64,000 bases of DNA. Origin: Vibrio penaeicida (GTDB taxonomy: Bacteria; Pseudomonadota; Gammaproteobacteria; Enterobacterales; Vibrionaceae). Position numbers and translations under genes: made by a program. The notes under the pieces were generated by a model, which did not search any database, was not told the origin of the DNA, and saw nothing but the letters and a program-made list of their open reading frames with translations. Location of the stretch: NCBI RefSeq assembly GCF_019977755.1, contig NZ_AP025144.1, positions 248,001-312,000 on the forward strand, in the 5' to 3' direction. Positions 4,752 through 46,180 of this stretch are shown here, piece after piece (within the stretch, counting starts at the first letter, position 1; every line of letters starts with the position of its first letter).

Positions 4752-4776
4752 AAAATTAGGCTCCTATGAGGAGCCT
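4751..4776 (-). terminator. terminator of the CNNM/CorC-like gene
   Basis: AGGCTCC/GGAGCCT stem with a TATGA loop; read leftward it is followed by AATTTTT. It lies between the convergent yjaG and CNNM-family genes; the plus-strand side lacks a T-run. Confidence 0.7.
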
Positions 4777-4783
4777 TGATGAG

Positions 4784-5884
4784 TTATTGATTTTTATCGG
4801 TGTTTTCGACAACAGGTGGTTCAGCCTCATCGTCGTCATCCCGACTTTCAATTACGCCATGTGTTTCTTTCCACTTTTCCCAGCGCTGGTTGGCTAGGAA
4901 CTGCATGTCGCTTGTTTTGTCTGCTTCATCGACAATTTCTTCACCGAGTAAGTACTCGAAGATGTCTTCAAGGGTAACAATACCTTGAATTGTGCCGTAT
5001 TCATCCACAATTAGTGAGAGCTGTACGCGCTGCGCCATCATTTGGTCAAACGCTTTCGGTAACCCTTTATTGTTTAAGATTACGTGAATAGGGCGCATCA
5101 CTGCCCCCAACTGTTTCTCACCTTCGCCAGATTGGCGCATTCTAAATAGCTCCAACCGATGGACAAAGCCAAGGATATTGTCGGTTTGTTGGCTGTAAAC
5201 CAATGGGCGAGAAAAAGGCGTATCTTTATGATCTTCTAGGAACTCATTGATCGTCATCTCAGCATTGACGCGGAAAACAACTGGGCGTGGCGTCATTACC
5301 TGAGTTACAGGTACATCTTGAATGTTCAGTAAGTTATGCAAAATACGAGATTCGCCTTCTGCAAATTCACCTGATTCTTTCGCCAATATTGCCATAGCTG
5401 ACAATTCGTCACGCATTTTAGGTGCTTGATGCCCATGGGCTAGACGTTTGGTGATCTGTTCTGAAAACCAAACAAAGGGGGTAAGTGCCCATACCATCCA
5501 GCGAAGTGTCGTTGCCGCCGATGGAGCAAGCTGTCGCCAGTATGTTGCGCCTATAGTCTTAGGAACGATTTCAGAGAAGACAAGAATACCGAACGTAAGT
5601 ACCGCGGAAAATACACCGAGCCACTGACTACCAAATACAACAGCAGCTTGTGCACCTGCTGTGGCGGCGCCAATCGTGTGAGCTATCGTATTGAGCGTCA
5701 AGATGGAGGCGAGTGGTCTGTCTATGTCCTCCTTCAATTCATACAATTTTTGAGCTGACGGATGGCCTTGTTGTCGAAGCTGGGCAATATAGCTGGGGGT
5801 AATACTCAATAATACCGCTTCTAAAACTGAGCAGATAAATGACACTCCAATCGCAATGGAGACATATAGAGCGAGCAGTAACAT
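4784..5884 (-). CDS. CNNM/DUF21 and CBS domain membrane protein (HlyC/CorC family)
   Basis: A 366-aa inner-membrane protein. The N-terminal DUF21/CNNM domain (about 1-170) has several hydrophobic helices, starting LLLALYVSIAIGVSFICSVL. A paired CBS module follows (about 190-320: TQVMTPRPVVF... and SLIVDEYGTIQGIVTLEDI), then a charged acidic tail. The shorter tail lacks an obvious CorC_HlyC domain. Family members affect magnesium/cobalt efflux or resistance; the substrate here is not known. A terminator follows immediately. Confidence 0.85.
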   Translation of the reverse strand: MLLLALYVSIAIGVSFICSVLEAVLLSITPSYIAQLRQQGHPSAQKLYELKEDIDRPLASILTLNTIAHTIGAATAGAQAAVVFGSQWLGVFSAVLTFGILVFSEIVPKTIGATYWRQLAPSAATTLRWMVWALTPFVWFSEQITKRLAHGHQAPKMRDELSAMAILAKESGEFAEGESRILHNLLNIQDVPVTQVMTPRPVVFRVNAEMTINEFLEDHKDTPFSRPLVYSQQTDNILGFVHRLELFRMRQSGEGEKQLGAVMRPIHVILNNKGLPKAFDQMMAQRVQLSLIVDEYGTIQGIVTLEDIFEYLLGEEIVDEADKTSDMQFLANQRWEKWKETHGVIESRDDDDEAEPPVVENTDKNQ

Positions 5885-12465: not shown

Positions 12466-12495
12466 CAAAAAACGCCACTCGATGTGGCGTTTTAG
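12466..12495 (-). terminator. chemoreceptor gene terminator
   Basis: AACGCCAC/GTGGCGTT stem (12471-12491) with loop TCGAT; read leftward it ends in TTTTTTG. It lies 33 bp past the stop codon of the chemoreceptor gene. Confidence 0.8.
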
Positions 12496-12523
12496 CGTGT
12501 TTATCCAATCGCACCTTGAACGA

Positions 12524-14167
12524 TTAAACCTTGAAGTGATGGATTATCTTTTGGAGGTTTTGCCCATTACTAAGCAATACTTCACTTGCTTGTGCAACTT
12601 GCGTTGCTTGGGCTGCCGACTGGTCGCTGTTTTCTGAAATGATGACCAAATTTTTACTGATCTCTTCGGTAGCAAGAGTCTGCTGAGCACTTGAATCGGC
12701 TATTTGCTGGTTAAGATCCAATATATGGCTGATTTGTTGCCCAATTTCGGCCAATGTTTCTCGTGCTTCCTTAGCTTGTCCGTGGGTGGCATTGGATTGG
12801 ACTTGTGTTTTCTCCATTGCAGAGGTAACCGTTTTTGCTCTAGCTTGTAGGTTACCTACAATTTGCTCTATCTCATCAGTACTTGCTTGCGTTCGAGTTG
12901 CTAAGGTGCGTACTTCATCTGCCACCACCGCAAAGCCTCGTCCTTGTTCCCCAGCACGAGCGGCTTCAATAGCTGCGTTGAGCGCCAATAAGTTAGTTTG
13001 CTCAGCAATACCCCGAATAACATCCAATACCGTACTCACCGTTTCAGAATCCTGAGCAAGTTGAAGAGTACTTTTTTCTGTTTCTGTCAGTAGGTCGGAC
13101 AGTGAGCTCATATGGCTGGTCGCGCTATCGATAACACTAACCCCTTGCTCACCCAATTGTGCAGCTTGTTGTGCAGCATCTGCGGCAGAAGAGGCTGACG
13201 TAGCGACTTCTTGGTTACTGGCGTGGAGCTCATTCATCGCAGAGGCAACTGTATCGACGGATTGATGTTGTTCACCCGCCTTCATTGACGCATCTGACGC
13301 CACTTGGTTAAGTTGTGTAGCGGCGCTAGTAATGCCTTCACTTACAGGAATCATGTCGGTGACAATAGAGCGTATTTTGTTGGTAAATAGATTAAATGCC
13401 GCAGCGATGTGGCTGAGTTCATCCTTTCCATTCGAAGGTAAGTCTTTGGTGAGGTCGCCATCTCCTTCGGCGATATCATTAAGTGCTTCTTCGGTGTCAA
13501 TACAAGGTTTGGTAATGCTGTAGCCAAACCAAGTGGCAATGAGAGCCATAGTAATCAAGCAGGCAATTATAATCATAATGATTGACTGGGCTCGCTCCCA
13601 AAACAGCGCGTCTACATCATCAATGTATACCCCACTTCCAACAATCCACCCCCAAGGTTCATGGAGTTTTACATAAGACACTTTTTCTACATCTACTTCC
13701 GAACTAGGCTTTGGCCACATGTAATTGACGAACCCACCGCCGTTGTTTCGCTTAACCTCGTTAACGAATTCAATGAAAAGTGATTTTCCTGTGGGATCTT
13801 TTACACCGGACAAGTCCTTACCATTAAGTTGAGGTTTAATTGGGTGATTAACCATATAGGGGCGGGTGTCGTTTACCCAAAAGTAATCATTTTTCTCGTA
13901 CCGCAGACCATTTAGTGCAGCCTTAGCTTGGGTCTGTGCTTCTACTTTAGTAAGAGTTCCATTTTTTTCGAGTTGGTAAAAATGCTCAATTACACTGTGC
14001 GCTGTCTCGACCAAATGGCGAGTTTTTACTTGTTTAGCGGTAAGCAGGTCACCAAAGTAAGCGTATTTTATGTAGGCAAGTGGGGCGAGCATAAGTAACG
14101 CAATAGTAAGCGTCATAATGTACAGCCGTGATTTGATGGACACGGAGCGCAAGCTAATTCCATTCAT
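12524..14167 (-). CDS. Methyl-accepting chemotaxis protein with single Cache sensor
   Basis: A 547-aa transmembrane chemoreceptor. It has an N-terminal membrane helix (about 15-35) and a periplasmic sCache_2-type domain (about 40-185, with [15 protein letters not shown] and [15 protein letters not shown]). A second membrane helix (about 195-217), HAMP, and the cytoplasmic signalling domain with the conserved hairpin tip ([20 protein letters not shown]) follow. Cache_2 receptors typically bind small organic acids; the ligand is not predictable here. It is monocistronic with its own terminator. A short perfect palindrome lies upstream. Confidence 0.9.
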
Positions 14168-26850: not shown

Positions 26851-26876
26851 AAACCAGAGCATAGCTCTGGTTTTTT
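26851..26876 (+). terminator. terminator of the MFS gene
   Basis: AAACCAGAGC-ATA-GCTCTGGTTT stem followed by TTT, 52 bp after the stop codon and 22 bp before crbS. Confidence 0.85.
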
Positions 26877-26897: not shown

Positions 26898-29800
26898 ATG
26901 CAAGGTTGGATTGTCATCCCCGTTTCATTGACCTATCTCGGTCTGTTGTTTTTTATTGCTTGGTATGGCGATCGCCGTGTGAAATGGCTGTCACGCTGGC
27001 GTCCTTGGATCTACAGTTTGTCGATTGCGGTGTACTGTACCTCGTGGACTTTCTACGGAACGGTAGGGCAAGCAAGCAGTAATCCTTGGTCTTTCATTCC
27101 CATCTATGTTGCTCCGATTCTCGTTTTCACTATTGGCTGGCGATTGCTCGCACGGTTGATTCTTATCGCCAAACGCGAACACATTACGTCTATTGCCGAT
27201 TTCATTGCCGCCCGATACGGAAAATCACAAGGTTTGGCAGTCACGATCACCATTATTGCTGTGGTGGGGATTCTGCCATATATCGCCCTTCAGCTCCGTG
27301 GTATTACCATGGGGCTAGAGCTGGTAGCACCAAATTTAACCGAAGATTTGGGTTATCAAGACGCCAATATTTCTTGGTTTGTGGTGTTGGCGTTAGCTAT
27401 GTTCACCATGCTCTTTGGAACAAGGCACATCGACAATACCGAGCACCACCGTGGCATGATGATGGCCGTCGCATTTGAGTCCATCGTAAAGCTGGTGGCT
27501 TTTCTCACTGTGGGCTGCTTTATTGCTTATGTTGCTTTGCATACGCCCGAGCTCGATTTAATGGCGATTGCCAGTGAAACCTACGAATCACCGAATGTTC
27601 CAACACTCGTGATTCACACCATACTAACCATGGCTGCCATTATTTGTTTACCACGACAGTTTCACACCATGGTGGTAGAAAACGAAAAAGCGAAAGATCT
27701 CTACACCGCGCGGTGGCTGTTTCCAATTTACTTAGTATTGATGGGGCTGTTTGTCTTACCTATTGCGTGGGCAGGACAAGGGCTATTAACAGGTGTTTCG
27801 CCTGACTCCTATGTGATCAGTTTGCCTCTCTCCATGGGGGCAGAAAACATAGCGTTGCTGGCGTTTTTGGGCGGTACGTCTGCCGCGTCGGGCATGGTTA
27901 TCGTGTCGACGATCGCGTTAGCCATCATGGTCTCAAATGATTTAGTTTTGCCGCTCATTCTAAGGCGAATGAAGCTTTCCGAGCGCACCCATACCCACTT
28001 CTCTGGCATGTTATTGAATATCCGCCGAGGACTAATTCTTTTGCTATTGGCAGGAGCGTGGGCATTTTATCAAGTGCTTGGCAGTATCAGTTCGTTGTCG
28101 GTGATTGGGTTGCTTTCGTTTGCTGCTATCGCACAATTTGCGCCTTCATTAATCGGTGGTATGTATTGGCGAGAAGGCAATCGAAAAGGGGTTTACGTCG
28201 GTTTATTTGCGGGCTTTACCGTGTGGCTTATCACCCTAATGAGTCAAACGGAGATGCTGGCAGGCAGCGCCGACAGTAACTTTTTATTGTGGGTGGTTAC
28301 GCCACCGGACGTGCTATCAAACCTATCGCTGTCTATGTCGGACTGGGGTATGTTTCTGAGTGTTTTGCTGAACACATTCTTCTATATCGCAGTATCTCTC
28401 TTTACTCGCTCTAGCCTGAGTGAGCGCTTACAGTCGGCAGCGTTTGTCGGAACACCGTTGCCAGAAAGCGAAAATGTCAGCTTGTATCAAAGCCGAGTGA
28501 CAGTGGCAGAGTTAGAGATGCTGGCGTCTCGATTTGTTGGGCGAAGCCGCGCCCGTGCTGCATTTCGAAATTTCTGGAATCAGCAGGGTGGCGACATGCT
28601 ACCCAACCAACAAGCTTCTTCAGCCCTCATTCGTCATACTGAACGGGTGCTCGCTGGGGTGTTTGGTGCCTCTTCCGCTAAGTTAGTCCTTACTTCTGCG
28701 CTTCAAGGCAGAAATATGCAGTTAGAAGAAGTCGCGACCATCGTTGATGAAGCTTCTGAGCTGTATGATTTTAGCCGCGGGTTACTACAGGGCGCGATTG
28801 AACATATTAGCCAAGGTATTACCGTGGTGGATAAGCAGCTTAGGTTGGTGGCGTGGAATCAGCGATATCTGGAGTTGTTCGATTTTCCTACGGGGCTTAT
28901 TCAGGTTGGTCGCCCCATTGCTGATGTGATTCGTCACAATGCTCAGCAAGGGCTATGTGGTCCTGGTGACCCTGAAGATCACGTAAAACGACGTGTTGAG
29001 CACCTCGTGCGCGGAACCAAGCACACCTCTTCTCGAATTCGACCTGATGGTCGTTTTATAGAGGTGCAAGGTAACCCAATGCCGGGCGGCGGCTTTGTGA
29101 TGAGTTTTACGGATATCACCGTGTTCCATGAAGCAGAAAAAGCGTTGAAAGAAGCCAACGAAAATCTGGAGTCACGGGTACATGAGCGAACCATCGAGCT
29201 AGAACGGTTGAATAAGCGCTTGGTCTCCGCCACTCAAAGTGCCGAATCAGAATCGCATTCCAAGAGCCGATTCTTAGCTGCGGTCAGCCATGATTTGATG
29301 CAGCCGTTGAATGCGGCGCGGCTTTTTGCTTCATCTCTTTCTGAAACCGCCAAAGATGATGACACGAAAAAGTTCTCTCACCACATTGAGAGCGCGCTTG
29401 GTGCAGCGGAAGAACTGATTGGTGATTTGCTGGATATTTCTCGATTGGAATCGGGGAAACTAGAAACCAATGTACATGCGTTTTCCTTAAACGACGTACT
29501 CGATAATTTGGATGCCGAGTTCAGCGCGTTAGCCAAACAGCAAGGTATTAATTTCAAAATGGTGCCTTCCAATCTACTGGCGGAATCTGATCCCAAATTA
29601 TTGCGCCGAGTGCTGCAAAACTTCCTCACCAACGCTTTTCGTTATAACCCGAAAGGCAAGGTACTGCTGGGGGCTCGCCGAGTGGGTAACCAAGTTCGAA
29701 TCGAGGTTTGGGACAATGGTGTTGGCATTCCTGAAGACAAACAAGCCGCTATTTTTGAAGAGTTTACGCGCGTAGAGGTGGGGCACAGCGATCAAGGCTT

Positions 29801-30329
29801 GGGGTTAGGGCTTGCGATAGCAAAAGGCATCGCTCGCGTGCTTGGGCACGAGATTTCGCTCAGGTCTTGGCATGGGCAAGGCACCGTCTTTTCGGTGGCA
29901 TTAAACCGAAGTGCTCAAATTGAACCTCAAGCAGCGATATCAGCGCCAGCCAATACCAGTGATGTGGCTGGAATGAAGGTTCTTTGTGTTGATAACGAAG
30001 CGGACATCTTAGTAGGAATGCAAGGGCTATTGGAGCGTTGGGGCTGCGATGTAAAAGTGGCAGAAGATTTAGTCCAAAGCTTAAAAGCACTCGAAAACGA
30101 TTGGGCACCGGAAGTGATTTTCTCCGACTATCGCTTAGATCATGGCAGAACGGGATTAGAAGTTTTGCAGCAATGCCGACTCAGATTGGGTGACAGCTTT
30201 GAAGGGGTGATCATCAGTGCCGATCGGACCGATGACATGTTGGACGCCATTCAATCCAACGGATTCAGTTTTATCGCCAAACCAGTAAAACCGTTGAAGT
30301 TGAGGGCGGTGTTGAATCGGGTAAGTTGA
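26898..30329 (+). CDS. crbS: CrbS-type hybrid sensor kinase with sodium:solute symporter domain
   Basis: A 1143-aa fusion protein. An N-terminal SLC5/sodium:solute symporter domain (about 1-480, 13 predicted helices) is followed by a linker, a PAS domain (about 640-750) and a histidine kinase core. The phospho-His is in AAVSHDLMQPLNA near 799, with ATP-lid motif DNGVGIPEDK near 940. A C-terminal receiver domain (about 1022-1143) has its Asp in SDYRLDHG. This matches CrbS of the CrbSR system that activates acs in Vibrio cholerae. The cognate regulator gene lies 3.7 kb downstream on the opposite strand. Confidence 0.9.
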   Translation: MQGWIVIPVSLTYLGLLFFIAWYGDRRVKWLSRWRPWIYSLSIAVYCTSWTFYGTVGQASSNPWSFIPIYVAPILVFTIGWRLLARLILIAKREHITSIADFIAARYGKSQGLAVTITIIAVVGILPYIALQLRGITMGLELVAPNLTEDLGYQDANISWFVVLALAMFTMLFGTRHIDNTEHHRGMMMAVAFESIVKLVAFLTVGCFIAYVALHTPELDLMAIASETYESPNVPTLVIHTILTMAAIICLPRQFHTMVVENEKAKDLYTARWLFPIYLVLMGLFVLPIAWAGQGLLTGVSPDSYVISLPLSMGAENIALLAFLGGTSAASGMVIVSTIALAIMVSNDLVLPLILRRMKLSERTHTHFSGMLLNIRRGLILLLLAGAWAFYQVLGSISSLSVIGLLSFAAIAQFAPSLIGGMYWREGNRKGVYVGLFAGFTVWLITLMSQTEMLAGSADSNFLLWVVTPPDVLSNLSLSMSDWGMFLSVLLNTFFYIAVSLFTRSSLSERLQSAAFVGTPLPESENVSLYQSRVTVAELEMLASRFVGRSRARAAFRNFWNQQGGDMLPNQQASSALIRHTERVLAGVFGASSAKLVLTSALQGRNMQLEEVATIVDEASELYDFSRGLLQGAIEHISQGITVVDKQLRLVAWNQRYLELFDFPTGLIQVGRPIADVIRHNAQQGLCGPGDPEDHVKRRVEHLVRGTKHTSSRIRPDGRFIEVQGNPMPGGGFVMSFTDITVFHEAEKALKEANENLESRVHERTIELERLNKRLVSATQSAESESHSKSRFLAAVSHDLMQPLNAARLFASSLSETAKDDDTKKFSHHIESALGAAEELIGDLLDISRLESGKLETNVHAFSLNDVLDNLDAEFSALAKQQGINFKMVPSNLLAESDPKLLRRVLQNFLTNAFRYNPKGKVLLGARRVGNQVRIEVWDNGVGIPEDKQAAIFEEFTRVEVGHSDQGLGLGLAIAKGIARVLGHEISLRSWHGQGTVFSVALNRSAQIEPQAAISAPANTSDVAGMKVLCVDNEADILVGMQGLLERWGCDVKVAEDLVQSLKALENDWAPEVIFSDYRLDHGRTGLEVLQQCRLRLGDSFEGVIISADRTDDMLDAIQSNGFSFIAKPVKPLKLRAVLNRVS

Positions 30330-30330
30330 A

Positions 30331-30357
30331 AAAGAGCGCCTTTTGGCGCTCTTTTTA
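30331..30357. terminator. bidirectional terminator between crbS and the outer-membrane protein gene
   Basis: AAAGAGCGCC-TTTT-GGCGCTCTTT stem followed by TT; the same hairpin read leftward also ends in T's. It serves both convergent genes. Confidence 0.85.
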
Positions 30358-30360
30358 CAA

Positions 30361-30963
30361 TTAGAATTTGTAGCCGATACCTACGTAGAACGAACTTAGG
30401 TCTAATGTGATACCACCGTCTTCAATACTTGTCTTTTTATAACCTGCACGAGCTAAAACGCCGTTGTGGTGCTGGTATCCACCTTCTAAACCGTAAATGA
30501 AGCCATTTTCACTTGATGTCTTAATTGCAAAGTTGTTTACCAAGTCCAGATTAAGAGTGTATGAACCGTAGCCAAGAGTACCACCAATATAGATGTTGTC
30601 ATTGACGTAGTATTTTGGTTTTACATTCAATGCAGTGCTAGTGATATAAGCTTCAGCTGCTCTATCTGAGAACGTTTTGTAGTTGCCCCAGTTATAAAAT
30701 TCTAACTCAGCAGCAACATTAATTTTGTCGTTGGCTTTGAATTCATAACCAAGGTTGAAGCCTGATGCAATATCTAGGTCAGAGTTGTATGAATTATCGC
30801 TAGAAATGGATTCTCCAGAGACAGATGATTCTCCCGAAAGTCCCAAATCCAAACCTGCGTAAAAGCCTTCTGTTTTTACTGACGTTGGCGCTTTGTCTTC
30901 TTGAGCTTGTGCTGGAAGGGCGATAGCTAGAGATAGCGCGCTCAGTAGAATTGTTTTATTCAC
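30361..30963 (-). CDS. small outer-membrane beta-barrel protein
   Basis: A 200-aa secreted protein. The signal peptide is MNKTILLSALSLAIALPAQAQ with cleavage near residue 20. Alternating beta-strand pattern, repeated Tyr/Gly-rich strands (GFYAGLDLGLSG, NLGYEFKAND, GGTLGYGSYTL, FYVGIGYKF) and a C-terminal Phe are typical of eight-stranded OmpA/opacity-like barrels. No specific family or function is recognised. It lies between crbS and a small membrane-anchored protein gene and may be unrelated to acetate use. Confidence 0.75.
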   Translation of the reverse strand: MNKTILLSALSLAIALPAQAQEDKAPTSVKTEGFYAGLDLGLSGESSVSGESISSDNSYNSDLDIASGFNLGYEFKANDKINVAAELEFYNWGNYKTFSDRAAEAYITSTALNVKPKYYVNDNIYIGGTLGYGSYTLNLDLVNNFAIKTSSENGFIYGLEGGYQHHNGVLARAGYKKTSIEDGGITLDLSSFYVGIGYKF

Positions 30964-31111
30964 TTTTATAATTTCCTGATTGATGTATCTATATTTTCGC
31001 GCGAATTATTATTTCTAATTCATATAGTTATCAATGGACAAATTGTTAGTATTTATTAATGATTGTCTATTTTATAATTTCTTGGAGATTATCCTGATTG
31101 AGCTGAAATAG

Positions 31112-31136
31112 AAAAACCGTCAGGTTGACGGTTTTT
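31112..31136. terminator. hairpin terminator
   Basis: AAAAACCGTCA-GGT-TGACGGTTTTT perfect 11-bp stem with A/T runs on both sides; positioned to end transcription of the 31238-31720 gene leftward. Confidence 0.8.
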
Positions 31137-31237
31137 GGGGGAGTTTTAATGTTGTTTAGGGCTGAATTTCGCTAATCGATCTATCGTGCAAAATTCAGAT
31201 TAAGTCGTTTCTTGAGTGAATTTTTATCTTAAATCGA

Positions 31238-31720
31238 CTATTTGTCTTCAGTAAACAGCGTTTCATAAACCACGAATTGGGTGTTTGCTTCACCGTAATA
31301 TAGCGTGTCGCCAGACTGAAACACCATCAGTAACTTGCTTTCTTCATTCTGTGGAGCATTAACGGTTAAGTGCCAGTTTTGCGCATCGATTTTACGCATT
31401 TTTGATGGAATACGTTTATCGTCAGGGGAGTCTGCTATTGCGATTTTGGCGCCCTCTAAAGGTAAATCTGCTTTTAAACTTAACGTCAATTGACCGTCTT
31501 TAATCCCTTCTGAGCGAAACTGTACTTTAAAATCCCCATTTTCCATATTGCACAAACCGCTGGTGTAGCGGCAATTGGATTTGCTTGCCAGCTTATAAGA
31601 TTCCCCTTCTTTGGCAGCATGCGGTTTCTCGCTTATTGCTGCGTCCGTACCGAAATACGCAATAATGGCAAGAATGGGAGCGATGAGCATGGCAATAATA
31701 AAGTGCTTGTTTTTAAACAT
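31238..31720 (-). CDS. conserved hypothetical membrane-anchored protein
   Basis: A 160-aa protein with one N-terminal membrane segment (about 7-26, IIAMLIAPILAIIAYFG) and a periplasmic domain containing two cysteines in a C-X6-C spacing (SNCRYTSGLCNM near 49-56) that could form a disulfide. It resembles uncharacterised proteins common in Vibrio. It lies downstream of the symporter on the same strand but is separated by a terminator. No function can be given. Confidence 0.65.
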   Translation of the reverse strand: MFKNKHFIIAMLIAPILAIIAYFGTDAAISEKPHAAKEGESYKLASKSNCRYTSGLCNMENGDFKVQFRSEGIKDGQLTLSLKADLPLEGAKIAIADSPDDKRIPSKMRKIDAQNWHLTVNAPQNEESKLLMVFQSGDTLYYGEANTQFVVYETLFTEDK

Positions 31721-31772
31721 GTTTGGGCTTCTTCCTGCTGACTTTTATCTAAAATGCCTCAGATGAGGAGAT

Positions 31773-31797
31773 AAAAAAAGCCCCTGTCGGGGCTTTT
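31773..31797 (-). terminator. terminator of the symporter operon
   Basis: AAAAGCCCC-TGTC-GGGGCTTTT stem; on the minus strand a long T-run follows. It lies 17 bp past the end of the symporter reading frame. Confidence 0.85.
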
Positions 31798-31813
31798 GTG
31801 GCGTGTGTTTTAA

Positions 31814-33542
31814 TTAGTGTGACTGAGCGTCGCCTGCGCCAGCTGGAACACGTACGTGCTCAACCAAGTCTTTCACTTCTTGCGGTGTATCTGCGGTTAC
31901 TTTAGAAACGGCAAATGCGACTGCGAAGTTGAAGGCGGCACCGATAGCACCAAATGCATTTGGTTCAATGCCTAGGAACCAGTTGCTGCCCCAACTTTCT
32001 AGGTATTTCCAATCAGCGATGAACAAAATACCTAGAAAGTTGGAATACGTAGAACAAAGTAATCGTGATACCTGCGATCATACCGGCGATTGCACCTTCC
32101 TTGTTGATGTTCTTGCTGAAGATACCCATCATCAAGGCGGGGAATATCGACGAAGCGGCCAAGCCAAAGGCGAGGGCTACGGTACCGGCGGCAAATCCGG
32201 GTGGGTTCAAGCCTAAATAGCCTGCCACCGCAATTGCCACCGCCATCGATATCCGACTGGCGAGGAGCTCCTTCTTCTCGGATATGTTCGGATTTATCAC
32301 CCCTTTTATTAAGTCGTGGGATATGGACGACGATATCGCGAGCAATAAGCCGGCAGCAGTAGAGAGTGCAGCCGCCAAGCCACCTGCTGCTACTAATGCG
32401 ATGACCCAGTTAGGCAGTTTCGCAATTTCAGGGTTTGCCAGAACCATGATGTCACGGTCCACTTTTAACTCGTTTGTTGCTTTGTCAGAGGTGTACTGAA
32501 TCTCACCGTCGCCATTCTTATCGTCAAATCCTAGAAGACCTGTTTTCTCCCAGTTTTTGAACCAAGCTGGACGCTCGTCGTATTTCAAGTATTCGTTCTG
32601 AGCTGGGTTTACTGTGTCCATTAAGTTCAGGCGAGCCATTGCTGCTACAGCTGGAGCCGTGGTGTAAAGGATCGCAATAAAGAACAGTGCCCAACCTGCT
32701 GAAGTTCGTGCATCACGTACTTTCGGTACGGTGAAGAAACGGATGATTACGTGAGGCAGACCTGCCGTACCAATCATCAGAGACATGGTGTAAACGAACA
32801 TGTTCAGTGTATCGCCCCGGACGGCGGTGGTGTATTCGGTGAATCCAAGCTCTGTGACGACTTGATCAAGCCGATCGAGCAAGTAGACATCGGTTCCGAC
32901 CATGGTCCCACCTAAACCAATTTGAGGTAGAGGGTTACCTGTCAGCTGAAGTGAAATGAAGATTGCGGGAATAGTGTAAGCTAAAATGAGTACGCAATAC
33001 TGAGCGATCTGTGTGTAAGTAATCCCTTTCATTCCGCCCATTACAGCGTAAATGAATACGATACACATACCAATCAACAGACCCGTTGAGTAGTCCACTT
33101 CAAGGAAACGACCAAACGCAACACCCACACCTTTCATCTGACCGATAACGTATGTCACCGATGCGATGATCAAACACGCTACCGCTACAACGCGGGCAGT
33201 GTTGGAATAAAAGCGCTCGCCTACGAATTCTGGCACTGTGAACTTACCAAACTTACGAAGGTAAGGAGCAAGAAGCAGAGCAAGTAATACGTAACCACCG
33301 GTCCAACCCATAAGGAATACAGAGCCACCGTAGCCCATAAAGGCAATCAAGCCAGCCATCGAAATAAACGATGCTGCCGACATCCAGTCTGCTGCTGTTG
33401 CCATGCCGTTTGCGATAGGGTTTACTCCCCCGCCCGCAACATAGAATTCTTTGGTCGAGCCAGCGCGGGCCCAAATGGCGATACCAATGTAAAGTACAAA
33501 GGTGGCACCGACGACTAAATATGTAATTGTTTTAAGATCCAT
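31814..33542 (-). pseudogene. frameshifted VC2705-type sodium:solute (acetate) symporter
   Basis: Codons 1-503 from ATG 33542 encode an SLC5-type sodium:solute symporter of the VC2705 subfamily, which pairs with a DUF4212 subunit (directly upstream here). The frame then shifts near 32036: translation from the start stops at 32013 after seven aberrant residues (509 aa). The missing end, LGILFIADWKYLESW to the stop at 31814 and including the last membrane helix, continues in another frame. The break lies in a perfect 18-bp inverted repeat. Codon use is atypical in two internal patches. Function may be lost, or the shift may be an assembly error. Confidence 0.8.
31991..32043. repeat. 18-bp perfect inverted repeat spanning the symporter frameshift
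   Basis: CCAACTTTCTAGGTATTT (31991-32008) and its exact reverse complement (32026-32043) are separated by 17 nt. The distal arm contains the point where the symporter frame is lost. Confidence 0.95.
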
Positions 33543-33554
33543 CTTAACGACTCC

Positions 33555-33818
33555 TTACTCGTCCACGTCAAATTCGCGGTCTAACTGACGCATCTTCCAC
33601 GCGTAGTAGAAAATGATTGCCAGGAAGCAGTAAATTGAGCCTTGCTGCGCAAACCAGAAACCGAGCTTGTATCCGCCAAGTTGGAATTGATTTAGTGCAT
33701 CAACAAACAAAATGCCACAACCGAATGACACTACAAACCAGATTGCCATCAAGGAAATCATGAGTCTTACGTTTTTGTCCCAGTAGGCCTTTGCCCGTTC
33801 TTTGTTTTCGAACGCCAT
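33555..33818 (-). CDS. DUF4212 small subunit of sodium:solute symporter
   Basis: An 87-aa membrane protein with two hydrophobic helices (MISLMAIWFVVSFGCGILFV and an IYCFLAIIFYYAWKM stretch) and a charged C-terminus (RQLDREFDVDE). It matches the DUF4212 / TIGR03647 family found immediately upstream of VC2705-type symporters and presumed to be a partner subunit. Start at 33818 is set by AGGAGA five bases before the ATG; the frame upstream is unsupported. The stop is 12 bp before the symporter start. Confidence 0.9.
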   Translation of the reverse strand: MAFENKERAKAYWDKNVRLMISLMAIWFVVSFGCGILFVDALNQFQLGGYKLGFWFAQQGSIYCFLAIIFYYAWKMRQLDREFDVDE

Positions 33819-33949
33819 TGCCGTCTCCTTACGATATTGAATGCTCTTCATTACATGAACAGCTCGTTGTTAACGATTTGTATCAGGATTTACAATAGCA
33901 AGATGAAATCAAGAACTCTTTTCTACTTTAGTCTGGGCGATAAAATGAA

Positions 33950-33972
33950 AAAGCCCCCTAAAAACGGGGCCT
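33950..33972 (-). terminator. crbR terminator
   Basis: Interrupted GCCCC/GGGGC stem (AAGGCCCC ... GGGGGCTT on the minus strand) followed leftward by TTTTT; lies 58 bp past crbR. Confidence 0.6.
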
Positions 33973-34029
33973 TAAAGAGGAGTGTTCCGAAAAGTGAGAT
34001 GTTAACACGTTGTTAACTTAGCCGAAGGT

Positions 34030-34665
34030 CTAAGACTCTGGCTCCATTTGTTGAAGAAGAATGACGGCTTGAGTTCGGTTTTTGACACCGAGCTTGCGAA
34101 AAATGGCGGTCATGTGTGCTTTGATGGTCGCTTCTGAAACATTGAGTTCGTATGCGATTTGCTTGTTCAATAATCCGTCAGACAACATACCAAGTACGCG
34201 GTATTGTTGAGGGGTTAACGCGGCGATCTTTTCACTTAGCTCATTGCATGCAGCATTATTTGTGATCATCCCTTCTGGGAAGAAAGGTTCTCCGTTGAGT
34301 ACCTGATTGAGTGCCGCCACCAGCTCTCTCATGTCACTTGATTTTGGAATAAAGCCAAACGCACCATGGCTTTTAACTTGAGTGACGACACTGGATTCTT
34401 CACTTGCGGAAATAACGACAATCGGGAGATCTGGGTATTCGGCGCGAAGTTGGATCAAACCAGACATTCCATTGGCGCCGGGCATCTTCAAGTCTAACAA
34501 CAGAAGATCGGGTTCTTGCTCTTTCTCCAAAAGGGAAAGTAAAGCCTCTAGAGAATCGGCTTCAAGCAGATTGGCTCCGCTGATCGCCATATGTACCGAC
34601 TGAAATAAAGCATTACGGAACAGTGGGTGATCATCGGCGATGAGGATGGTGTAGGTCGAGTCCAT
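34030..34665 (-). CDS. crbR: CrbR, LuxR-family response regulator
   Basis: A 211-aa NarL/LuxR-type regulator. The receiver domain (about 4-120) has acidic residues ADDH, phospho-Asp in LLLLDLKMPGANG near 58 and Lys in FIPKS. The C-terminal LuxR helix-turn-helix (about 145-205) includes LTPQQYRVLGML and NKQIAYELNVSEATIKAHM. Context with acs, CrbS and the symporter identifies it as CrbR, the activator of acetate genes. ATG 34665 is preferred; a GTG at 34677 is also in frame. Confidence 0.88.
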   Translation of the reverse strand: MDSTYTILIADDHPLFRNALFQSVHMAISGANLLEADSLEALLSLLEKEQEPDLLLLDLKMPGANGMSGLIQLRAEYPDLPIVVISASEESSVVTQVKSHGAFGFIPKSSDMRELVAALNQVLNGEPFFPEGMITNNAACNELSEKIAALTPQQYRVLGMLSDGLLNKQIAYELNVSEATIKAHMTAIFRKLGVKNRTQAVILLQQMEPES

Positions 34666-34770
34666 GACGTTAAGCACTCTTTAACAGACAGTTAATTTAA
34701 TTATTATCACCGTCTCCAGAATACAACAACTAATATGCGCTTATTCTCTGATTTTTCTTCTGAAAATGTG

Positions 34771-45841: not shown

Positions 45842-45908
45842 TACATTACTTGTCAAAAAATGAATACCTTATCAGACCTGATAGAGGCGCAATAAGTTTC
45901 ATCATATA

Positions 45909-46041
45909 CCCAAGTAACCTCAATATGCTAGGTTCAGCGAGTATTGCTTGGTTTTTAGGCAAGGCATTGATTTGTCGATTTAGTGGTTCTAAATCAAAAA
46001 TCGATAACGCAGCATAAGAACCAAGCAATCTCGCCCTTGGG
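45909..46041. repeat. structured intergenic repeat, dsbD-dcuA spacer
   Basis: About 133 bp bounded by CCCAAG and CTTGGG. Inside, an imperfect hairpin (GCGAGTATTGCTTGGTT ... AACCAAGCAATCTCGC, one extra base) encloses a second one (GATTTAG/CTAAATC). The core shares the phrase CGATAACGCAG and its flanking pattern with the two MITE-like elements at 54232 and 58562, suggesting a related repeat family. It fills most of the 383-bp spacer, which holds no gene. Confidence 0.65.
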
Positions 46042-46180
46042 AGCCTATCTTTTGTCTACTTTCATCGTCAAAAAGCTTTGATAGGATGGGTTTAAATAGA
46101 GAGGCTAGGACTGAGGTTGGCGATAGAGCTCTGAATCCTGCATCTTGAGGTCACTAGGGTATCATTGTGTTTAGCAGAAG

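What the first reader, a model, noticed from the sequence alone, without database searches (positions are those of the whole stretch)
31991..32043. Symporter frameshift sits exactly in a perfect 18-bp inverted repeat: likely hairpin-templated mutation
CCAACTTTCTAGGTATTT and its exact complement lie 17 nt apart. The symporter frame is intact up to this point and resumes in another frame (LGILFIADWKY...) right after. Perfecting of an imperfect palindrome by template switching would change the length here and cause such a shift. The distal tail is still conserved, so the event is recent, or it is an assembly error.
Basis: partly seen in the sequence, partly recalled or inferred. Interest (0 to 1): 0.7.

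Follow-up and report, generated by a model that had tools for sequence, protein, structure and literature searches.

The report
Hairpin-copied mutation truncates symporter gene
In one Vibrio genome a short stretch of a sodium/solute (possibly acetate) uptake gene appears to have been overwritten with the reverse complement of a stretch 17 bases away, which shifts the reading frame; it looks like a clean natural example of a known copying error of DNA replication.

Summary
The 18-bp inverted repeat (31991-32008 / 32026-32043, 17-nt loop) is the longest perfect one with a loop of 3-40 nt in the window; chance expectation 3e-5. It lies in a VC_2705-family Na+/solute symporter gene. Of 227 genomes of the genus only this one has it (up to 3 mismatches). 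In 93 of 93 relatives with the close form of the gene the 71-nt segment is one nucleotide shorter and free of stops. The left arm is old, one base apart from the nearest relatives; in the right arm the window has 9 nt where the three nearest relatives share 8, and all six differing columns lie in a 14-nt exact match to the reverse complement of the relatives' own left arm. The tail shows no decay, and an intact protein identical in 501 of 501 and 69 of 69 compared residues is on 4 contigs with names withheld: a recent event, or an assembly error. Best reading: quasipalindrome template-switch mutagenesis, a known process. Not shown: reads, phenotype, and whether one left-arm base belongs to the same event.

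The parts
31991..32008 (.). Left arm of the inverted repeat: the old arm and presumed template; gene-distal on the minus strand
   Evidence: G157, G158 and G207 have the same 18 nt but for one base (31994)
32026..32043 (.). Right arm of the inverted repeat: the rewritten arm
   Evidence: differs from all 93 relatives compared; one nucleotide longer
32030..32038 (.). Converted tract: 9 nt where the three nearest relatives share the same 8 nt; 6 differing alignment columns
   Evidence: lies within a 14-nt exact match to the reverse complement of the relatives' own left arm
32009..32025 (.). 17-nt loop between the arms, in the same orientation as in relatives
31994..31994 (.). Single synonymous change in the left arm (Ser codon third position) that also improves the pairing; not explained by one-way copying into the right arm
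   Evidence: 85 of 93 relatives have the other base, 8 of 93 have this one
32013..33542 (-). Truncated VC_2705-family sodium/solute symporter, 509 aa (575 aa in the three nearest relatives)
   Evidence: TIGR03648, 797.2 bits, cut-off 320.75, profile 1-487 of 547; PF00474
31814..32026 (-). Out-of-frame but conserved remainder of the symporter; mechanical frame of 70 aa
   Evidence: TIGR03648 profile 498-547; 177-nt tail: 5 synonymous and 1 nonsynonymous codons against G157, 5 and 0 against G158, 11 and 2 against G207
33555..33851 (-). Small subunit of the symporter (DUF4212, TIGR03647), frame intact
34030..34677 (-). Neighbour: response regulator with LuxR-type DNA-binding domain (CrbR-like by architecture and position; name not tested)
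26898..30329 (+). Neighbour: hybrid histidine kinase (PAS, HisKA, HATPase, REC), CrbS-like by architecture; name not tested

Best explanation
A quasipalindrome-associated template-switch mutation. In the ancestor of this strain the two arms paired only in patches (in the nearest relatives 4 nt at the loop side, then 3 nt, then 4 of 5 at the outer end). During replication the nascent strand, after copying the left arm, the loop and the first 4 nt of the right arm, folded back, used its own left arm as template for at least the next 9 nt, then returned to the normal template through the matching outer patch. This made the arms perfectly complementary, lengthened the right arm by one nucleotide and so shifted the frame of the symporter gene, which now ends 8 codons later. 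Shown: the perfect repeat, the imperfect state in relatives, the exact match of every change in the tract to the opposite arm, absence of the repeat from the 226 other genomes searched, the broken frame in this assembly. Inferred: the replication event, fold-back rather than a jump to the sister strand, the leading strand, loss of transport function.
For: Perfect repeat, longest of its class in the window, chance expectation 3e-5. Found in 1 of 227 genomes of the genus, the window's own. In 93 of 93 close relatives the segment is one nucleotide shorter and free of stops; only the window has a stop. The left arm is conserved, so the right arm is the changed one. The window's tract is a 14-nt exact reverse-complement match to the relatives' flank; among 101, 60 and 449 tested difference clusters against G157, G158 and G207, rc matches of at least 10 nt number 2, 1 and 1, this site being among them each time; direct, reversed and complemented controls in the same direction give 0. 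The three nearest relatives share one precursor tract. An intact 575-aa protein identical in 501 of 501 and 69 of 69 residues to the two halves is on 4 contigs, longest 4.3 Mb. dnaA lies at position 16 of the same contig and the site at 280 kb, so if the origin is there a fork moving right makes the altered arm last on the leading nascent strand, as fold-back needs; GC skew is positive in 6 of 8 blocks of the window. In E. coli an 18-bp lacZ quasipalindrome mutates this way, with stronger induction on the leading strand (passages of PMC7202029 and PMC6357072).
Against: The base at 31994 in the left arm also changed towards pairing and cannot come from the same one-way copy; it may be an independent synonymous change (8 of 93 relatives have it), and the two facing positions do not covary among relatives (4 of 52 against 4 of 41, Fisher p 0.73). 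Initial pairing at the switch is only 4 nt, and the minimum-energy fold of the G157 stretch is not this hairpin. Controls: in the scan within the window a reversed control reached 15 nt against G157; in the test a second rc match of 12 nt appeared against G157 (near 4766), and in the opposite direction (relative's cluster in the window's flank) one reversed control reached 10.
Confidence: 0.85

Rival explanations
1. Assembly, consensus or library artefact: the culture has the open gene and the hairpin was made in vitro (polymerase fold-back during amplification) or by consensus error.
For: No reads available; an intact protein otherwise identical is on 4 contigs with names withheld, which may be conspecific or even the same strain; strong hairpins trouble polymerases (general knowledge).
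Against: Against G157 and G158 (60,390 and 60,463 nt aligned) there are 29 and 18 gaps not divisible by three; of those seen in both comparisons only this one shortens a long frame in its interior (579 to 513 codons stop to stop). The relatives' arms pair poorly, so there is little hairpin to trouble a sequencer before the change. The error would have to be a templated 9-nt rewrite carried by most reads.
Confidence: 0.1
2. Several independent point changes and a one-base insertion that happen to perfect the palindrome.
For: Each change alone is possible; the left-arm change at 31994 probably is one such (8 of 93 relatives have that base).
Against: Six differing columns in a 9-nt tract, while the whole 501-nt stretch differs from G157 by 3%, each leaving a complementary pair; chance of an 18-bp repeat 3e-5 per window.
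Confidence: 0.02
3. The repeat is a functional element (terminator, attenuator, recoding signal or invertible switch) that is meant to be there.
For: The RNA hairpin is strong (-29.8 kcal/mol, z -6.19).
Against: Absent from 226 other genomes of the genus; no terminator-like hit at the site among the 3 found in 31700-32300 (that scan allows loops of 3-8 only) and no run of T after the stem on either strand; it breaks a gene whose matching segment has no stop in 93 of 93 relatives.
Confidence: 0.02

Closest known systems
Quasipalindrome-associated template-switch mutations in E. coli (thyA hotspot; lacZ QP5/QP6 reporters, 18-bp quasipalindrome with a 4-bp insertion)
   Same: Imperfect inverted repeat becomes perfect by copying one arm from the other, with a length change and a frame effect (passages, abstract among them, of PMC7202029; passages of PMC6357072). 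Arm length here is also 18.
   Different: Allele in a Vibrio genome, loss rather than gain of frame; no genetic test.
Inverted-repeat arm homogenization with multinucleotide mutations in yeast coding genes (Abraham and Hazkani-Covo 2021)
   Same: Coding genes of S. cerevisiae strains, arms homogenized on terminal branches; one example went from 4-bp to 11-bp arms (passages of PMC8604942).
   Different: That survey left out indels (passages); here the event is a frameshift with an arm of 18.
Short inverted repeats of proteobacteria (Lavi et al. 2018, not read; as cited in a passage of PMC8604942)
   Same: Said there to suggest repeated template switching between arms in the evolution of proteobacteria.
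   Different: Concerns conserved non-coding repeats, not a gene-breaking single event.
[quoted passage not shown]
   Same: Deals with small-scale template switch errors in genome comparison (only the title and start of the abstract of PMC7954356 seen).
   Different: Bacterial, gene-breaking, single case.

Membership tests
[quoted passage not shown]
   18 of 18 pairs; longest of its class in the window
Quasipalindrome-associated template-switch mutation | Relatives have an imperfect repeat at the same place and the change is polarised | tested here: met
   93 of 93 close relatives have the other, stop-free form; patches of pairing read off for G157, G158 and G207
Quasipalindrome-associated template-switch mutation | All changes in the altered arm are predicted by the other arm of the precursor | tested here: met
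   14-nt exact match spanning all six differing columns, for each of 3 relatives
Quasipalindrome-associated template-switch mutation | Only one arm is changed by one event | tested here: inconclusive
   one further base in the left arm also differs from 85 of 93 relatives; origin not resolved
Quasipalindrome-associated template-switch mutation | Arises in replication by strand switching (genetic dependence, strand bias) | not testable with these tools
   altered arm fits leading-strand fold-back by position; no genetics
VC_2705 family sodium/solute symporter (TIGR03648) | Score over the curated cut-off | tested here: met
   797.2 bits, cut-off 320.75, for the truncated frame
VC_2705 family sodium/solute symporter (TIGR03648) | Adjacent small subunit (TIGR03647, DUF4212) | tested here: met
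   33555-33851, 121.5 bits, cut-off 26.05
VC_2705 family sodium/solute symporter (TIGR03648) | Full length, including the C-terminal end of the profile | tested here: not met
   profile 1-487 of 547 in frame; 498-547 only out of frame: a disrupted member
ActP acetate permease of the E. coli type (TIGR02711) | Score over the curated cut-off | tested here: not met
   137 bits, cut-off 1099.25

The most novel reading that the evidence does not exclude
Both arms were rewritten in one episode: the hairpin or cross-strand pairing left mismatches that were repaired in opposite directions, nine nucleotides of the right arm from the left and one nucleotide of the left arm (31994) from the right, so that a single event perfected a palindrome two ways and switched off a nutrient-uptake gene in one strain.
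Probability: 0.15. Interest if true: 0.5.

Novelty: new member of a known kind. Interest (0 to 1): 0.35.

Why it matters
In the papers seen here, template-switch mutations at quasipalindromes are studied with laboratory reporters (E. coli) and in surveys of yeast and primate genomes, and inferred for non-coding repeats of proteobacteria. Here precursor, product, template and direction can all be read in one bacterial genome and its relatives, and the event broke a gene. It shows that such gene losses can be recognised by mechanism, and points to a comparison of broken and intact natural strains for a VC_2704/VC_2705-type uptake system. It is not a new kind of process.

Tried and rejected
Recurrent homogenization at this site in other Vibrio: no covariation. 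Functional terminator: no hit at the site. Other strains with the broken form: the 70-aa remainder found 82 proteins, the best full-coverage identity being 80% and the highest of any 89% over 54% of the query; the broken C-terminus did not appear among the 120 listed or. As the collection is clustered at 90% identity, this does not exclude others. Plasmid records gave 23 distant homologues, all 60-80% identity. No tRNA in the window. Sequence search of solved structures gave only distant SSS relatives (4 sequences). [quoted passage not shown] no transport assay was seen in these passages. A search for quasi-palindrome, Vibrio and mutation together listed one paper, on a transposase; some searches were the other literature searches on the mechanism, and only the listed best 20 of each were seen. 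The alignment mixed strands (L115, L116, L117 and L129 run opposite to the rest), so those rows were not used and one search replaces it. The first cluster scan did not exclude self-overlap in its control and is replaced.

Full report
Observation. The window holds a perfect 18-bp inverted repeat at 31991-32008 and 32026-32043 with a 17-nt loop. Among perfect repeats with loops of 3-40 nt it is by far the longest in the window (next: three of 12 nt); 20 simulations gave one repeat of at least 12 (13 nt), and about 3e-5 of at least 18 are expected. It sits in a minus-strand gene, 33542 to 32013, whose product is 509 aa.

The gene. The product is a VC_2705-family sodium/solute symporter (TIGR03648, 797.2 bits against a cut-off of 320.75; PF00474), followed by its conserved remainder in another frame (TIGR03648 positions 498-547 in the mechanical frame 31814-32026) and preceded by the small subunit DUF4212/TIGR03647. 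It is not an E. coli-type ActP by the curated cut-off. Nearby are a LuxR-type response regulator and a hybrid histidine kinase that resemble the CrbR/CrbS acetate-switch pair; those names rest on architecture and on passages of PMC5436829 and were not tested. In V. [quoted passage not shown] The genome has no second close copy: its other matches are distant, 24 and 32% identity.

Relatives. The window's genome is 6.78 Mb in 3 contigs. Its genus is not named by the tool; the best named relatives are mostly Vibrio, so I call it Vibrio. A DNA search of 227 genomes of the genus (own included) gave matches in 171. The 94 with the closely related form (E of 1.8e-55 or better, own included) were compared base by base; the other 77 matched genomes (E of 3e-23 or weaker) and the 56 without a match were left out of this comparison. 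In 93 of 93 relatives the segment is 70 nt and free of stops; in the window it is 71 nt with a stop. The whole frame was followed to its end in that call only for G157, G158 and G207, each 575 aa; one search lists open frames of 575-579 codons for 15 of the 16 close-form relatives that it shows, the sixteenth (G001) matching in two pieces. The repeat, allowing 3 mismatches, occurs in 1 of 227 genomes, the window's own.

What changed. The left arm is present in the three nearest relatives with one difference. The right arm differs: against G157 (97% over 501 nt), G158 (96%) and G207 (93%), which share one and the same 8-nt tract, the window has 9 nt at 32030-32038 with six differing columns. 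The window's tract with its flanks is a 14-nt exact match to the reverse complement of the relatives' own left arm. Applied to the difference clusters of the aligned part of the window (at least 4 differing columns, neighbours at most 5 apart, span at most 26; 2 clusters in each comparison were too short to test), the same test gives rc matches of at least 10 nt in 2 of 101 clusters against G157, 1 of 60 against G158 and 1 of 449 against G207; this site is the one common to all three, the other being a 12-nt match in a terminator-like stem-loop near 4766. Direct, reversed and complemented controls in the same direction gave none of at least 10 nt; in the opposite direction one reversed control reached 10. 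In the scan within the window itself this site scored 18 and the best reversed control 15.

One base does not fit a one-way copy. At 31994 the left arm also differs, synonymously, by a base that pairs. 8 of 93 relatives have that base, regardless of their facing base (4 of 52 and 4 of 41, p 0.73), so I treat it as probably separate; a two-way repair remains possible.

Mechanism. The pattern is that of a quasipalindrome template switch. In the passages I saw, E. coli work describes the nascent strand using itself as template so that the repeat becomes perfect, uses an 18-bp lacZ quasipalindrome carrying a 4-bp frameshift, and reports stronger induction on the leading strand (PMC7202029; PMC6357072). 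Here dnaA is at position 16 of the contig and the site at about 280 kb, so if the origin lies at dnaA the fork moves to the right, the leading nascent strand makes the left arm first, and fold-back would alter the right arm, as seen. GC skew is positive in 6 of 8 blocks of the window. A jump to the sister strand would give the same product and is not excluded. As single-stranded DNA the window's stretch folds at -17.6 kcal/mol (z -7.94) on the plus strand, the G157 stretch at -6.6 (z -1.01) and not into this hairpin: the strong hairpin is the product, not the cause.

Real or artefact. Of the window, 60,390 nt were aligned to G157 and 60,463 to G158. Of 29 and 18 gaps not divisible by three, the one at 32034 is the only one present in both comparisons that shortens a long frame in its interior (579 to 513 codons stop to stop). 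Others lie where no long frame is open, near the ends of stop-to-stop frames, or in one of these two comparisons only: for example 53698 (209 against 243 codons, G157 but not G158) and 12467-12524 (61 against 147 codons, G157). That speaks for a good assembly, but reads were not available.

Age and effect. The 177-nt tail has 5 synonymous and 1 nonsynonymous changed codons against G157, 5 and 0 against G158, 11 and 2 against G207: no sign of decay. A 575-aa protein identical in 501 of 501 and 69 of 69 compared residues to the two halves is held on 4 contigs, longest 4.3 Mb; names are withheld, it is probably of the same species, and it could even come from another assembly of this strain. So intact copies exist, and the event is recent or an artefact. 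A hydropathy scan of an intact relative gives 21 overlapping peaks that I group by eye into about 13 helices, the last near 530-548, beyond the break at 501/502, in line with 13 membrane segments given for ActP, with a core of ten (passages of PMC7918813). Loss of the last helix probably harms the transporter, but this is not shown.

Verdict. The kind of event is known; the case is a tidy example.

Noticed in passing
window 4755-4790: Terminator-like stem-loop whose loop differs from G157 by a cluster that also matches a 12-nt reverse-complement copy: possible loop inversion by template switch; a match of at least 10 nt was seen against G157 only.
   Followed up: partly
window 45905-46077 and 26861: A ~172-nt stretch at 45905-46077 with an internal 18-nt inverted repeat, 89% complementary, resembles (79-80%, minus strand) part of a ~264-nt stretch that G157 and G158 have and the window lacks at 26861, just before the hybrid kinase gene: perhaps MITE-like.
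   Followed up: no
window 26898-34677: A hybrid kinase (CrbS-like) and a LuxR-type regulator (CrbR-like) lie on either side of the symporter here, while passages on V. cholerae give the distant locus numbers VC0303 and VC2702.
   Followed up: no
G000 (own genome): Genome of 6.78 Mb in 3 contigs, larger than the other 226 genomes of the genus listed (at most 6.4 Mb as rounded there).
   Followed up: no
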